Source of the DNA: Polaromonas sp.
GTDB lineage: Bacteria; Pseudomonadota; Gammaproteobacteria; Burkholderiales; Burkholderiaceae
NCBI GenBank assembly: GCA_013823505.1
Contig: PNMH01000024.1
Span: 1 to 44,472, forward strand
Direction of reading: 5' to 3'
Length of the DNA stretch: 44,472 nucleotides
Made by a program: the position numbers and the translations under genes
Notes under the pieces: model-generated
The model's input: the letters and a program-made list of their open reading frames with translations, nothing else
Databases searched by the model: none
Told to the model about the DNA's origin: nothing
Shown: positions 5,325 through 15,231 of the stretch, one piece after another
Position numbering within the stretch: position 1 is the stretch's first letter
Layout of the letters: each line of letters opens with the position of its first letter

Positions 5325-6590
5325 ATGAGCGCCTCCGCAACAGCCTCCGCCACCACTACCCTGCTGAATTTTTGGCCAACTGGGAAATTCACCCGCATCC
5401 CATACCATCTATACCAGGAGCCGGCAGTGCTCGAAGCCGAGCAGCAGCGCGTATTCGAAGGCGCGACTTGGAACTACCTCTGCCTTGAAGCCGAACTGCC
5501 TGAACCCGGCGACTACCGCACCACCTTCCTCGGCCGCATGCCGGTGGTGGTGGCTCGCGACAGCGACGGTGAGGTTTACGCGTTCGAGAATCGCTGTTCG
5601 CACCGCGGCGCGCTGATCGTGCTCGACGACGGGGGCACCGCGCGCGACTTCCAGTGCGTGTACCACGCGTGGCGTTACGACCGCCAGGGCAACCTCAAGG
5701 GAATCGCGTTCCAGAACGGCGTGAACGGCGAAGGCGGCATGGACCCGGCCTTCTGCATGAAGAGCCACGGCCCGCGCAAGCTGCGCACCAGCGTGTTCTG
5801 CGGCCTGGTTTTCGGCAGCCTGAGCGACGATGTGCCCGACCTCGAGGACTACCTCGGACCCGAAATCGCGCGCGGCATCTCGCGAGTGCTGCATAAACCG
5901 GTGCAGATCCTGGGCCGCTTCAAGCAGACGCTGCCCAACAACTGGAAGCTCTACGTGGAGAACGTGCGCGACACCTACCACGCCAGCCTGCTGCATGTGT
6001 TCTTCACCACCTTCCGCCTCAACCGCCTTTCGCAGAAGGGCGGCGTGGTGGTCAGCGAAGACGGCGGCAACCACATCAGCTTCTCGGCTATCGATCCGGC
6101 GGCCGAAAAGAGCGAGGACTACCAGGCCGAGGAACTGCGCTCGGAGAAGGACGACTTCAAGCTTGAGGACTCCACATTGCTGAAAGGCCTGGACGAATTC
6201 GGCGACGGCGTGACGCTGCAGATACTCTCGGTGTTCCCGGGTTTTGTGCTGGCGCAGATCCAGAACACCTTGGCGGTGCGCCAGGTACTGCCCGAAGGCG
6301 TTGAGTCCACGGCGCTGAACTGGGTCTACCTCGGTTTCAAGGACGATACACCCGAGCTGCGCACCATGCGCCACAAGCAATCCAACCTGATCGGTCCAGC
6401 CGGTTTCGTCTCGATGGAAGACGGTGCGGTAGGTGGCTTCGTGCAGCGCGGCATCGCCAGCGCCGGTGGCCATGCAGCGATCGTCGAGATGGGTGGCGAC
6501 AGCGTGCGCTCGCAAGGCAGCCGCACCACGGAAGCGTCCGTGCGCGGCTTCTGGAAAGCCTATCGCCTGCACATGGGAGCGGGTGCATGA
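5325..6590 (+). CDS. tphA2: Terephthalate 1,2-dioxygenase, large (alpha) subunit
   Basis: This Rieske non-heme-iron oxygenase subunit adds O2 to terephthalate, giving 1,2-dihydroxy-3,5-cyclohexadiene-1,4-dicarboxylate. The 421-residue protein has a Rieske centre C91-x-H93 / C111-x2-H114 and the catalytic segment NNWKLYVENVRDTYHASLLH, with iron ligands H219 and H224 and probably D366 in SMEDGAVG. Long stretches agree with the recalled Comamonas TphA2 (WNYLCLE, RKLR-x-x-VFCGLVFGS, LNRLSQKGGV, GDGVTLQILSVFPGFVL). The two arginines recalled as contacting the substrate carboxylates in Comamonas terephthalate dioxygenase (R309, R390) correspond to R319 and R400 here, at one constant offset of ten. 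It is the first gene of the operon, and its stop overlaps tphA3 (ATGA). No strong ribosome-binding site is seen. Confidence 0.9.
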   Translation: MSASATASATTTLLNFWPTGKFTRIPYHLYQEPAVLEAEQQRVFEGATWNYLCLEAELPEPGDYRTTFLGRMPVVVARDSDGEVYAFENRCSHRGALIVLDDGGTARDFQCVYHAWRYDRQGNLKGIAFQNGVNGEGGMDPAFCMKSHGPRKLRTSVFCGLVFGSLSDDVPDLEDYLGPEIARGISRVLHKPVQILGRFKQTLPNNWKLYVENVRDTYHASLLHVFFTTFRLNRLSQKGGVVVSEDGGNHISFSAIDPAAEKSEDYQAEELRSEKDDFKLEDSTLLKGLDEFGDGVTLQILSVFPGFVLAQIQNTLAVRQVLPEGVESTALNWVYLGFKDDTPELRTMRHKQSNLIGPAGFVSMEDGAVGGFVQRGIASAGGHAAIVEMGGDSVRSQGSRTTEASVRGFWKAYRLHMGAGA

Positions 6591-7063
6591 GCGCGGTGAT
6601 CGACACCGCGAGCGCGTTGGCGCTCAATGCTTATTGCGCGCGCTGCATCGACAACGACGAGCTCGAAGCCTGGACCCAACTCTTCACCGAGCAGTGCGTG
6701 TACCGCGTGACCACCGCAGATAACCACGCGCAGGGCATGGAAGCCAGCCTCATCTACGCCGACTCGCGCGCGATGCTCAACGACCGCGTGCTCTCGCTGC
6801 GCACGGCAAACGTGTACGAGAAGCAGCGCTACCGGCACCTGGTGGGCCTGCCTGTGCTGCTCGGCGAAACGCAGCGCGGCCAGCATAGCGAAACACCCTT
6901 CCTGGTGGTGCGCGTCATGCGCGGCGGCGAGACCATGATCTTCGCCACCGGGCGCTACCTCGATGAACTGGTGATCGACGGCACCGACACGCTGCGACTG
7001 GCCAGTCGCGTCGTGGTCTGCGACAGCCACAACACCGACACGCTGCTGGCTATTCCACTGTGA
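6587..7063 (+). CDS. tphA3: Terephthalate 1,2-dioxygenase, small (beta) subunit
   Basis: This is the structural beta subunit of the ring-hydroxylating dioxygenase (158 residues; NTF2-like fold, no cofactor), which assembles with TphA2 as an alpha3beta3 hexamer in this enzyme class. Diagnostic segments include VYRVTTADNHAQGMEAS, YADSRAMLNDRVLSLRTANV and the C-terminal VCDSHNTDTLLAIPL, which parallel the recalled Comamonas TphA3. The start codon lies inside the ATGA overlap with tphA2, indicating translational coupling. Seven bases separate its stop from the GTG of the reductase gene. Confidence 0.9.
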   Translation: MSAVIDTASALALNAYCARCIDNDELEAWTQLFTEQCVYRVTTADNHAQGMEASLIYADSRAMLNDRVLSLRTANVYEKQRYRHLVGLPVLLGETQRGQHSETPFLVVRVMRGGETMIFATGRYLDELVIDGTDTLRLASRVVVCDSHNTDTLLAIPL

Positions 7064-14284: not shown

Positions 14285-15231
14285 GCAGCAGCGCGCGGCT
14301 TGCCATTTCGATTGGCGACCCGAACGGCATCGGACCTGAGATCGCGCTCAAGGCGATAGCTGCAATGCCCCCGTCCGAGCATTACCGCTTTGAGTTGTTC
14401 GGCCCGGATTCGGTGCTGCGCCGCTGCGCCGAGCAGCTGAACCTGAGCTGGGTGCTAGAGGGTGTTCGCTGCCACGAGGCAGGCGCCCTTGACCCGGCTG
14501 CTGCCATTCCGGGTCGGATTGACGCAGCGGCTGGCGCTTCAGCAGTGGCAAGTGCCACCGCGGCCATTCAGGCGGCACAGGCGGGCGCTTGCGACGCTGT
14601 CATTGCCTGCCCGCACCATGAGACTGCGATCGCGAAGGCAGGCATCACATTCAGCGGATACCCTTCTCTGGTCGCGCGCGTGTGCGGTCAGCCTGCTGAA
14701 TCTGTTTTCTTGATGCTGGTGGGCGGAGGCTTGCGTATCGTGCATGTCACTCTGCACGAGAGTGTTCGAACTGCTCTTGATCGCCTCAGCACCGACTTGA
14801 TTGTGCATGCCACACACGCAGGCATCCTGGCCTGTCGGCAATTGGGCATGGCGACACCTCGCATAGGCATGTTCGGCATCAATCCACACGCATCAGAGGG
14901 CCAATTGTTTGGCTTGGATGACTCGCTGATGGTGCAGCCTGCGGTGGCGCAGTTGCGTGCGGAAGGCCACGACGTAAGCGAGCCGACGGGCGCAGATACC
15001 CTACTGGCCAACAGGCAGCACGACCTCTACGTAGCCATGTTCCATGATCAGGGGCATATTCCTATCAAGCTGCTCGCACCCAACGCCGCAAGCGCGCTCA
15101 GCGTGGGAGGAGACGTGGTGCTTTCCAGTGTGGGCCACGGAAGCGCCATGGACATTGCCGGCAAAGGCATCGCCAGTCCCGAGGGATTGCTCCGAACCAT
15201 TGGCCTGCTGAGTTCCGTCCCCAGCGTGTAA
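14281..15231 (+). CDS. tphB: Terephthalate dihydrodiol dehydrogenase (PdxA superfamily)
   Basis: The 316-residue enzyme of the PdxA fold oxidatively decarboxylates the cis-dihydrodiol from terephthalate to protocatechuate. Diagnostic segments agree with the recalled Comamonas TphB rather than with vitamin-B6 PdxA: ACPHHETAIAKAGITFSGYP, RIVHVTLHESVR, GINPHASEGQLFGLDDS and HDQGHIPIKLLAPN. The metal-binding histidines expected for the superfamily are in VTLHESV, PHASE and HDQGH. The ATG lies in an ATGA overlap with the TRAP gene. It is the last gene of the operon. A weak CCTC/GAGG stem follows at 15234-15253, without a clear T-tract. Confidence 0.9.
   Translation: MSSSARLAISIGDPNGIGPEIALKAIAAMPPSEHYRFELFGPDSVLRRCAEQLNLSWVLEGVRCHEAGALDPAAAIPGRIDAAAGASAVASATAAIQAAQAGACDAVIACPHHETAIAKAGITFSGYPSLVARVCGQPAESVFLMLVGGGLRIVHVTLHESVRTALDRLSTDLIVHATHAGILACRQLGMATPRIGMFGINPHASEGQLFGLDDSLMVQPAVAQLRAEGHDVSEPTGADTLLANRQHDLYVAMFHDQGHIPIKLLAPNAASALSVGGDVVLSSVGHGSAMDIAGKGIASPEGLLRTIGLLSSVPSV

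What the first reader, a model, noticed from the sequence alone, without database searches (positions are those of the whole stretch)
5325..15231. One operon that appears to carry p-toluate all the way to protocatechuate, using a P450 for the first step
A full terephthalate module (tphA2, tphA3, tphA1 and tphB) is interleaved with a CYP199-like P450, its ferredoxin and reductase, an SDR, an aldehyde dehydrogenase and a binding protein. All ten genes point one way with gaps of 74 bp or less and several start/stop overlaps. The enzymes form consecutive steps: methyl hydroxylation of 4-methylbenzoate, alcohol oxidation, aldehyde oxidation, dioxygenation and decarboxylating dehydrogenation. In the known Comamonas route the first step is done by a Rieske monooxygenase (TsaMB), so a P450 here would be a different solution fused to the terephthalate operon. 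p-Toluate, 4-carboxybenzaldehyde and terephthalate are also the main pollutants of terephthalic-acid manufacture. I do not know of a described operon of this make-up, but could not search the literature.
Basis: partly seen in the sequence, partly recalled or inferred. Interest (0 to 1): 0.88.

Follow-up and report, generated by a model that had tools for sequence, protein, structure and literature searches.

The report
P450-linked p-toluate-to-protocatechuate operon
A bacterial gene cluster appears to break down p-toluate, a pollutant from plastics manufacture, using a cytochrome P450 for the first step and the known terephthalate enzymes for the rest, and the same pairing recurs in other bacteria.

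Summary
Ten intact same-strand genes (5325-15231; gaps of at most 77 bp, three overlaps) encode terephthalate dioxygenase (tphA2, A3, A1), tphB, a CYP199-family P450 with ferredoxin and reductase, an SDR, an aldehyde dehydrogenase and an aromatic-acid-type TRAP binding protein, beside a divergent PcaR/TphR-like regulator. Comparison supports the p-toluate reading well; no activity was measured.

In loci from one GTDB scan this P450 lineage lies near tphA2 in 30 of 35, against 0 of 14 for more distant relatives, in several gene orders. Its dioxygenase partners come from several TPADO lineages. A palindrome, GTTCGATATnCGAAC, precedes the P450 or tphA2 gene in 29 of 35 such loci and 0 of 21 controls, but tphA2 in only 3 of 13 stand-alone tph loci read. 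The regulator-plus-operon block is 99% identical to that of another Hydrogenophaga whose sampled core genes are 85% identical, with unrelated flanks: a transferred catabolic cassette.

It is a new variant of the TsaMBCD-Tph route, with a P450 replacing the Rieske oxygenase TsaMB. Ten searches of open-licence papers found no description.

The parts
4400..5185 (-). IclR-family regulator near the PcaR/PcaU/PobR group, TphR-like; divergent from the operon
   Evidence: TIGR02431 279.3 bits, just under its cut-off 284.75; Pfam IclR_C and HTH_IclR
5200..5214 (+). palindrome GTTCGATATTCGAAC, putative operator box 1
   Evidence: 2 matches in the window, 0.15 expected
5283..5297 (+). near-palindrome GTTCGATATGCGAAT, putative operator box 2, 83 bp from box 1; 82-83 bp spacing also in L014-L018, L020, L025 and L073
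5325..6590 (+). tphA2-like: terephthalate 1,2-dioxygenase large (alpha) subunit
   Evidence: 64% identity to 7vju; Arg309/Arg390 equivalents kept; tree
6587..7063 (+). tphA3-like: dioxygenase small (beta) subunit
   Evidence: Pfam Ring_hydroxyl_B
7071..8105 (+). tphA1-like: [2Fe-2S]/FAD/NAD reductase of the dioxygenase
   Evidence: Pfam Fer2, FAD_binding_6, NAD_binding_1
8131..9351 (+). cytochrome P450 of family CYP199, proposed 4-methylbenzoate methyl hydroxylase
9384..9707 (+). [2Fe-2S] ferredoxin of putidaredoxin type, proposed P450 redox partner
   Evidence: 4ltu E 3e-29
9707..10888 (+). FAD-dependent NADH:ferredoxin reductase of putidaredoxin-reductase type
   Evidence: 3fg2 E 2e-96
10939..11694 (+). 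short-chain dehydrogenase, proposed 4-hydroxymethylbenzoate dehydrogenase
   Evidence: near the P450 in 34 of 35 loci
11709..13157 (+). aldehyde dehydrogenase, proposed 4-formylbenzoate (4-carboxybenzaldehyde) dehydrogenase
   Evidence: near the P450 in 25 of 35 loci
13235..14284 (+). periplasmic TRAP (DctP) solute-binding protein of the aromatic-acid group
14281..15231 (+). tphB-like: proposed terephthalate cis-dihydrodiol dehydrogenase (decarboxylating), PdxA family

Best explanation
The unit is a transferable p-toluate catabolic operon. A TRAP-type binding protein captures the aromatic acid. An NADH-driven reductase, ferredoxin and CYP199-family P450 chain hydroxylates the methyl group of 4-methylbenzoate; the SDR and then the aldehyde dehydrogenase oxidise the alcohol and aldehyde to terephthalate. 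TphA2A3A1 dihydroxylates terephthalate and TphB dehydrogenates and decarboxylates the diol to protocatechuate, which other genes in the genome take on. A divergent TphR/PcaR-like regulator acting at two GTTCGATATnCGAAC palindromes controls the operon. Shown here: gene content, intact frames, homology, conserved pocket residues, recurrent linkage, recurrent palindromes, horizontal transfer. Inferred: the substrate, each catalytic step, regulator binding, co-transcription.
For: Linkage: tphA2 lies in the fetched stretch in 30 of 35 loci whose P450 is at least 59% identical, 0 of 14 below that; SDR 34 of 35 against 1 of 14. In the genus, 12 of 12 copies of this P450 (in 11 of 67 genomes) have tphA2 within about 3 kb. 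Genome-wide, a TPADO alpha of at least 55% identity is present in 32 of 36 genomes with the P450 clade and 0 of 12 with outgroup CYP199. Partners: P450s of the linked loci fall in one 38-row clade (100/99), while their TPADO alphas are spread over the TPADO tree, with at least 5 label changes forced by well-supported branches. Palindromes upstream of P450 or tphA2 in 29 of 35 clade loci, 0 of 21 controls, and upstream of both genes in L040-L042. Of seven CYP199A4 pocket residues listed in PMC11854964, six are identical and Ser244 is Thr. TPADO alpha groups with Comamonas and Rhodococcus enzymes. Binding protein close to SBPs titled as specific for aromatic acid ligands. pobA is not near the P450 in any of 14 genomes examined, which speaks against 4-methoxybenzoate as the main substrate (places compared). 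LigB-family matches, which include protocatechuate 4,5-dioxygenases, are present in 5 of 5 Hydrogenophaga genomes; this is weak, as the family also rings in 4 of 14 control genomes.
Against: No activity, expression or growth data. CYP199A4 accepts many para-substituted benzoates, such as 4-methoxybenzoate (PMC11854964), and 3 of the 120 relatives listed carry that name in a source database. Five of 35 clade loci show no tphA2 in the fetched stretch: L022, L034 and L057 end 4.8-7.8 kb downstream of the P450; L032 and L045 lack it there, though both genomes have it elsewhere. An ALDH of at least 60% identity is missing in 10 of 35 loci. Three deep clade members (L044, L045, L061) lack tph linkage and the Ser244Thr change. 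The SDR is nearer to other SDRs than to TsaC. The best solved match of TphB is deposited as a 4-hydroxythreonine-4-phosphate dehydrogenase. AromaDeg lists a cluster of TPADO-related oxygenases of unknown substrate headed by a Hydrogenophaga sequence (PMC4250580, passage); whether the present alpha subunit falls in it was not tested. The palindrome precedes tphA2 in only 3 of 13 stand-alone tph loci and is missing in 6 of 35 clade loci. Label changes on the TPADO tree could partly be losses of the P450 cassette. The promoter-like site is no better than chance.
Confidence: 0.8

Rival explanations
1. The P450 is a 4-methoxybenzoate (anisate/veratrate type) O-demethylase like CYP199A2/A4; it shares the operon with tph genes only because both serve aromatic acids that converge on protocatechuate.
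For: CYP199A4's natural activity is given as oxidation of para-substituted benzoates such as 4-methoxybenzoate (PMC11854964); 3 of 120 listed relatives are so named by a source. pobA, needed for the product, is present in 14 of 14 genomes examined.
Against: pobA is not near the P450 in any of those 14 genomes. SDR, ALDH and tph genes would have no role with the P450, yet the SDR is near it in 34 of 35 loci. The 36 clade rows aligned have Thr244, Phe295 and Ser297 where CYP199A2/A4 have Ser, Val and Thr.
Confidence: 0.1
2. The true substrate is another compound that ends in terephthalate, such as 4-hydroxymethylbenzoate, 4-formylbenzoate or a longer 4-alkylbenzoate, and p-toluate is only a side substrate.
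For: SDR and ALDH alone could feed the first two into Tph; (S)-1-phenylethanol dehydrogenase 2ew8 is the second-best solved relative of the SDR.
Against: A P450 with a dedicated redox chain would be unnecessary for the alcohol or aldehyde; an ethyl side chain oxidised at the benzylic carbon would not give terephthalate by these enzymes (inference).
Confidence: 0.08
3. The gene set is a fortuitous neighbourhood on a catabolic island, without a common pathway.
For: The block's flanks differ between genomes, and catabolic genes cluster on islands.
Against: Conserved content despite reshuffled order, pairing with different TPADO lineages, recurrent palindromes, tight spacing.
Confidence: 0.02

Closest known systems
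tsaMBCD of Comamonas testosteroni T-2 (p-toluenesulfonate / p-toluate route)
   Same: Same proposed three steps from p-toluate to terephthalate, by an oxygenase, an alcohol dehydrogenase and an aldehyde dehydrogenase (PMC5460024, PMC10511449, passages).
   Different: First step there is the Rieske oxygenase TsaM with reductase TsaB; here a P450 with ferredoxin and reductase. The SDR is not closest to TsaC. tph genes lie in the same operon here.
tph operon of Comamonas sp. E6 (tphR-tphC-A2-A3-B-A1)
   Same: tphA2, A3, A1, B and a divergent regulator; conserved arginines of the dioxygenase.
   Different: Order A2-A3-A1-[P450, ferredoxin, reductase, SDR, ALDH, binding protein]-B; TRAP-type instead of TTT-type binding protein (PMC8556258, passages).
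CYP199A2 / CYP199A4 of Rhodopseudomonas palustris
   Same: Same family; heme Cys, Arg92, Ser95, Leu98, Phe182, Phe185, Ala248, Asp251 and Thr252 kept; same kind of class I redox chain.
   Different: About 50% identity; Ser244Thr, Val295Phe, Thr297Ser, Leu396Val; on the tree CYP199A2/A4 lie outside the tph-linked clade.
Stand-alone tph operons of Rhodococcus jostii RHA1 (pRHL2), Pseudomonas veronii, Variovorax
   Same: Same Tph enzymes; divergent regulator; the palindrome precedes tphA2 in RHA1 and P. veronii, not in the two Variovorax loci.
   Different: No P450, SDR or ALDH cassette in the stretches read.

Membership tests
CYP199 P450 family | more than 40% identity to CYP199 members (nomenclature rule recalled) | tested here: met
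   51.4% to CYP199A2, 49.4% to CYP199A4
CYP199 P450 family | heme-ligand Cys, Asp251/Thr252 pair, Arg92 and Ser95 for the substrate carboxylate | tested here: met
   all identical
CYP199 subfamily A | more than 55% identity to subfamily A (rule recalled) | tested here: not met
   49-51%, separate branch
CYP199 P450 family | oxidises para-substituted benzoates | not testable with these tools
   needs an enzyme assay
Terephthalate 1,2-dioxygenase (TphA2A3A1) | alpha, beta and [2Fe-2S]/FAD reductase subunits | tested here: met
Terephthalate 1,2-dioxygenase (TphA2A3A1) | arginines 309 and 390 of 7vju (role in binding terephthalate recalled) | tested here: met
   Arg319 and Arg400 of the window protein
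Terephthalate 1,2-dioxygenase (TphA2A3A1) | groups with characterised TPADOs rather than related Rieske enzymes | tested here: met
   with the Comamonas and RHA1 enzymes (that of RHA1 characterised: recalled) apart from 43-46% relatives; the node has 83/91 support. Placement against the unknown AromaDeg clusters was not tested
TphB | PdxA-family enzyme closest to a solved TphB | tested here: inconclusive
   best matches 8zj3, 8zj7, 8zj5, 8zhy (E 3e-111) are deposited as 4-hydroxythreonine-4-phosphate dehydrogenase; 4aty, named TphB-type, follows at 4e-79, other PdxA chains at 6e-43 or weaker; score under the PdxA equivalog cut-off, 215.8 of 290.35
tph operon (Comamonas type) | TTT-type binding protein TphC in the operon | tested here: not met
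   binding protein is DctP/TRAP
TsaMBCD pathway | Rieske monooxygenase TsaM with TsaB as the first enzyme | tested here: not met
   the only Rieske oxygenase in the operon is the TPADO; the extra oxygenase is a P450
TsaMBCD pathway | TsaC-type SDR alcohol dehydrogenase | tested here: inconclusive
   SDR family shared, but TsaC (8sy8, E 4e-36) ranks 30th among solved relatives
PcaR/PcaU/PobR IclR regulators | score over the curated cut-off of TIGR02431 | tested here: not met
   279.3 against 284.75 bits, full-length match; a near relative rather than a filed member
Aromatic-acid TRAP solute-binding proteins | sequence and fold nearest to SBPs solved with aromatic acids | tested here: met

The most novel reading that the evidence does not exclude
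A distinct CYP199 subfamily is a dedicated p-toluate methyl hydroxylase. With its SDR (and often ALDH) it forms a mobile upper-pathway cassette that has been joined to, or re-partnered with, terephthalate operons several separate times in Alpha- and Betaproteobacteria, under a TphR-like regulator that works through GTTCGATATnCGAAC operators. This would be an unrecognised widespread route for p-toluate, parallel to TsaMBCD, and a physiological role for part of the CYP199 family.
Probability: 0.7. Interest if true: 0.65.

Novelty: new variant of a known kind. Interest (0 to 1): 0.57.

Why it matters
p-Toluate, 4-carboxybenzaldehyde and terephthalate arise in polyester raw-material manufacture, and the published p-toluate step rests on the slow Rieske enzyme TsaMB (apparent kcat about 6 per minute with a non-native reductase, PMC10511449, passage). 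A P450 operon that completes the path to protocatechuate would offer another enzyme for degradation and for p-xylene-to-terephthalate biocatalysis. It would give a group of CYP199 P450s a physiological role, and it would be a clear case of a catabolic upper pathway repeatedly linked to one lower pathway.

Tried and rejected
A plasmid location was considered and not supported: core genes (phaR, rpsB, tsf, bamA, lpx genes) adjoin the island, and no plasmid record held most of the operon (3 records matched, at most 15% covered). Transposon ends: no long flanking repeat was found in 3600-16000. Anisate O-demethylation as the main role was tested through the position of pobA and disfavoured. A TsaC-type SDR was looked for and not found to be the closest. 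The promoter-like site 5231-5259 is no more than chance gives (1 found, 1.5 expected). TRAP membrane subunits are plentiful in the five genomes examined (17-24 DctM matches each), so the partner of the binding protein could not be named. Literature: ten searches with combinations of p-toluate, p-toluic acid, 4-methylbenzoate, P450, CYP199, tphA, terephthalate, Hydrogenophaga and TPADO residues; no paper describing such an operon appeared in the listings. Passages were seen of PMC5460024, PMC6562992, PMC8556258, PMC10511449, PMC11854964 and PMC4250580; the other papers as search listings only. The library holds open-licence papers only. Rows dropped before counts: L062-L066 (29-33% or partial P450 matches); L013 (the window's operon at 99%) in the box count and the trees; L012, L070 and L062 in the P450 tree; in the A2 tree, loci with too short a stretch of A2 or none (among them L022, L031-L034, L036, L039, L040, L043, L057).
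Full report
OBSERVATION. The window holds ten intact, same-strand genes at 5325-15231, with intergenic distances of -4, 7, 25, 32, -1, 50, 14, 77 and -4 bp, and a divergent IclR-family gene at 4400-5185. Profile searches and solved relatives assign them as tphA2, tphA3, tphA1, P450, ferredoxin, ferredoxin reductase, SDR, ALDH, TRAP-type binding protein and tphB. 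The window is Hydrogenophaga-like: its own assembly is not held, and the nearest held genome, G001, has the operon at the same place as the Hydrogenophaga MAG of locus L013.

ENZYMES. The tphA2 product is 64% identical to the solved alpha chain 7vju and keeps both arginines, 309 and 390 there (that they bind terephthalate is recalled). In a tree of 43 alpha subunits it lies with the Comamonas enzyme and that of Rhodococcus jostii RHA1 (characterised: recalled), apart from three 43-46% relatives; that node has 83/91 support. AromaDeg has clusters of TPADO-related oxygenases of unknown substrate, one headed by a Hydrogenophaga sequence (PMC4250580, passage); membership in those was not tested. 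The tphB product is PdxA-like; its best solved matches bear the name 4-hydroxythreonine-4-phosphate dehydrogenase, and 4aty, named terephthalate dihydrodiol dehydrogenase, comes next, so its role rests on the operon. The P450 is 51.4% identical to CYP199A2 and 49.4% to CYP199A4. A paper on CYP199A4 lists the pocket as Arg92, Ser95, Leu98, Phe182, Phe185, Ser244 and Ala248, with the carboxylate held by Arg92, Ser95 and Ser244 (PMC11854964, passages). Six of the seven are identical here and Ser244 is Thr, which keeps a hydroxyl. All 36 rows of the tph-linked group aligned (the window, L013-L043, L046, L057, L058, L073; a few without tphA2 in view) have Thr244, Phe295 and Ser297, and Val396 in the 35 that cover it; CYP199A2/A4 have Ser, Val, Thr and Leu. 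No outgroup row has Thr244, though single outgroup rows share one of the other three. L044, L045 and L061, which lack tph linkage, keep Ser244. The signature was noticed after the fact and may be simple descent; a link to the smaller methyl group is my inference.

RECURRENCE. One scan of GTDB genomes, by six short peptides of this P450, returned 54 loci; 49 were mapped (L013-L061). With P450 identity of at least 59%, tphA2 (at least 50% identity) lies in the fetched stretch in 30 of 35, SDR in 34, ferredoxin in 33, reductase in 30, ALDH in 25 and the related binding protein in 12; with lower P450 identity the counts are 0, 1, 2, 1, 0 and 0 of 14 (the identity threshold differs by gene). Hosts include Hydrogenophaga, Noviherbaspirillum, Neopusillimonas, Ramlibacter, Ottowia, Piscinibacter, Celeribacter and other roseobacters, Afipia and Bradyrhizobium. 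Gene order differs between groups: tph before the P450, after it, or divergent. Of the five loci without tphA2, L022, L034 and L057 end 4.8-7.8 kb downstream of the P450, whereas in four related loci (L031, L033, L036, L039) tphA2 lies at about +10.3 kb; L022, L032 and L045 have tphA2 elsewhere in the genome, L034 and L057 showed none. Across whole genomes a TPADO alpha of at least 55% identity is found in 32 of 36 genomes with this P450 clade (L044, L045 and L061 included) and 0 of 12 with outgroup CYP199; of the four without, one (L043) has a fragment of tphA2 at its contig edge. Within the genus, 11 of 67 genomes hold 12 copies of the P450 (81% identity or more), each with tphA2 within about 3 kb, while 14 tphA2 copies of 65-69% identity have no such P450 on their contig. 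Relatedness makes these counts non-independent. In an even sample of 399 genomes of the order only two carried the clade P450, both of this genus: the system is rare there but taxonomically scattered.

SEPARATE JOININGS. The P450s of the linked loci fall in a 38-row clade with 100/99 support that excludes CYP199A2/A4; L044, L045 and L061 lie inside it. On the TPADO tree the P450-linked alpha subunits (25 rows) need at least six label changes, five forced by well-supported branches. Some of these could be losses of the P450. The trees also disagree: Ramlibacter-type P450s group with those of Hydrogenophaga (26 rows, 100/97), but their TPADO alphas group with stand-alone Comamonadaceae enzymes (11 rows, 100/99) and not with the window's. 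So P450 cassette and terephthalate genes were joined, or re-partnered, more than once. This is the strongest argument here that the P450 makes what TphA uses.

REGULATION. Two copies of GTTCGATATnCGAAy lie upstream of tphA2 at 5200 and 5283 (2 found with up to two mismatches, 0.15 expected, none of 100 shuffles with two). With up to two mismatches to GTTCGATATnCGAAC a box lies within 350 bp upstream of the P450 or tphA2 start in 29 of 35 clade loci and 0 of 21 controls; total hits were 56, against 3, 1 and 2 in three mononucleotide shuffles. The six without are L021, L024, L032, L037, L043 and L046; L037 and L043 begin inside tphA2. In L040, L041 and L042, where P450 and tph genes are divergent, both have a box; in L023, where the tph genes also lie on the other strand, only the P450 has one. 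In the Hydrogenophaga-type loci with two boxes the spacing is 82-83 bp. Of 13 stand-alone tph loci read, the box precedes tphA2 in three (RHA1, P. veronii, Paracoccus albus) and the regulator in one (L089); L072, a control with a stand-alone tph operon, has none. So the box is not a general tph operator in these bacteria but goes mainly with the P450-linked group; a TphR-like regulator acting there is inferred, and its likeness to PcaR-type operators is recalled, not tested.

MOBILITY. The window and L013 (G001) share one block, window 4202-15394, at 99.08% identity with no similarity in the fetched flanks. Core genes at 26799-36638 are only 85% identical in G001 and lie on another contig. Seven other loci (L014, L015, L018, L019, L020, L025, L073) likewise match only over the regulator-plus-operon block, apart from two further hits in L015 to its extra SDR and binding-protein genes; in L014 the match stops inside tphB. 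The neighbouring phaR side is present, away from the operon, in all six genomes examined. The unit therefore travels as a cassette, here in a chromosomal setting; no transposon ends were found.

COMPARISON AND NOVELTY. The known route oxidises p-toluate with TsaMB, TsaC and TsaD (PMC5460024, passages), and TsaM hydroxylates 4-methylbenzoate in vitro (PMC10511449, passages). Here the oxygenase is from an unrelated superfamily and the whole path to protocatechuate lies in one operon. Ten literature searches listed no such description; the library lacks most subscription journals. Two papers that surveyed tph clusters, PMC8556258 and PMC6562992, have no occurrence of P450 in the main text. I judge this a new variant of a known kind. 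The reading that the P450 acts on p-toluate is likely but unproven.

Noticed in passing
window 15762-17104, - strand: Three small adjacent ORFs (97, 91 and 156 aa) that look like diverged copies of one another (by eye) and match no Pfam family; the 91 and 156 aa ones also match no NCBIfam model.
   Followed up: partly
window 15500-15606: A stretch of about 106 bp recurs at other places in two of six Hydrogenophaga genomes (87-89% identity), possibly a small repeated element near the right edge of the cassette.
   Followed up: no
window 519-1067, - strand, and 1308-1922, + strand: An mscL gene and a DUF937 gene lie left of the island; mscL maps to a different chromosomal place in relatives than the phaR side does, so the junction is rearranged.
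   Followed up: partly
L072 (G023:C177) 9549-18500: A 51%-identical outgroup CYP199 with its own ferredoxin and reductase lies about 4 kb from a stand-alone tph operon; that genome also carries the clade P450 beside tphA2 on another contig.
   Followed up: no
L044, L045, L061: Deep members of the P450 clade without tph linkage and with Ser244; L044 and L045 have an adjacent SDR of 51-53% identity, possibly an intermediate or different function.
   Followed up: no
L033 14993-20534 and L026 3454-9265: In Ramlibacter-type loci an ABC uptake system (L033) or a Peripla_BP_6 binding protein (L026) plus a TctC protein sit between the P450 cassette and the tph genes.
   Followed up: partly
L015 17763-21100: After tphB there is a second set of binding-protein, SDR and ALDH genes (55%, 52%, 32% identity to those of the operon), perhaps an extension for another substrate.
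   Followed up: no
L014 16147-16530: Similarity to the window stops inside tphB (window 14664) in this copy; the same genome has a second copy, L019, that matches over the whole block.
   Followed up: no
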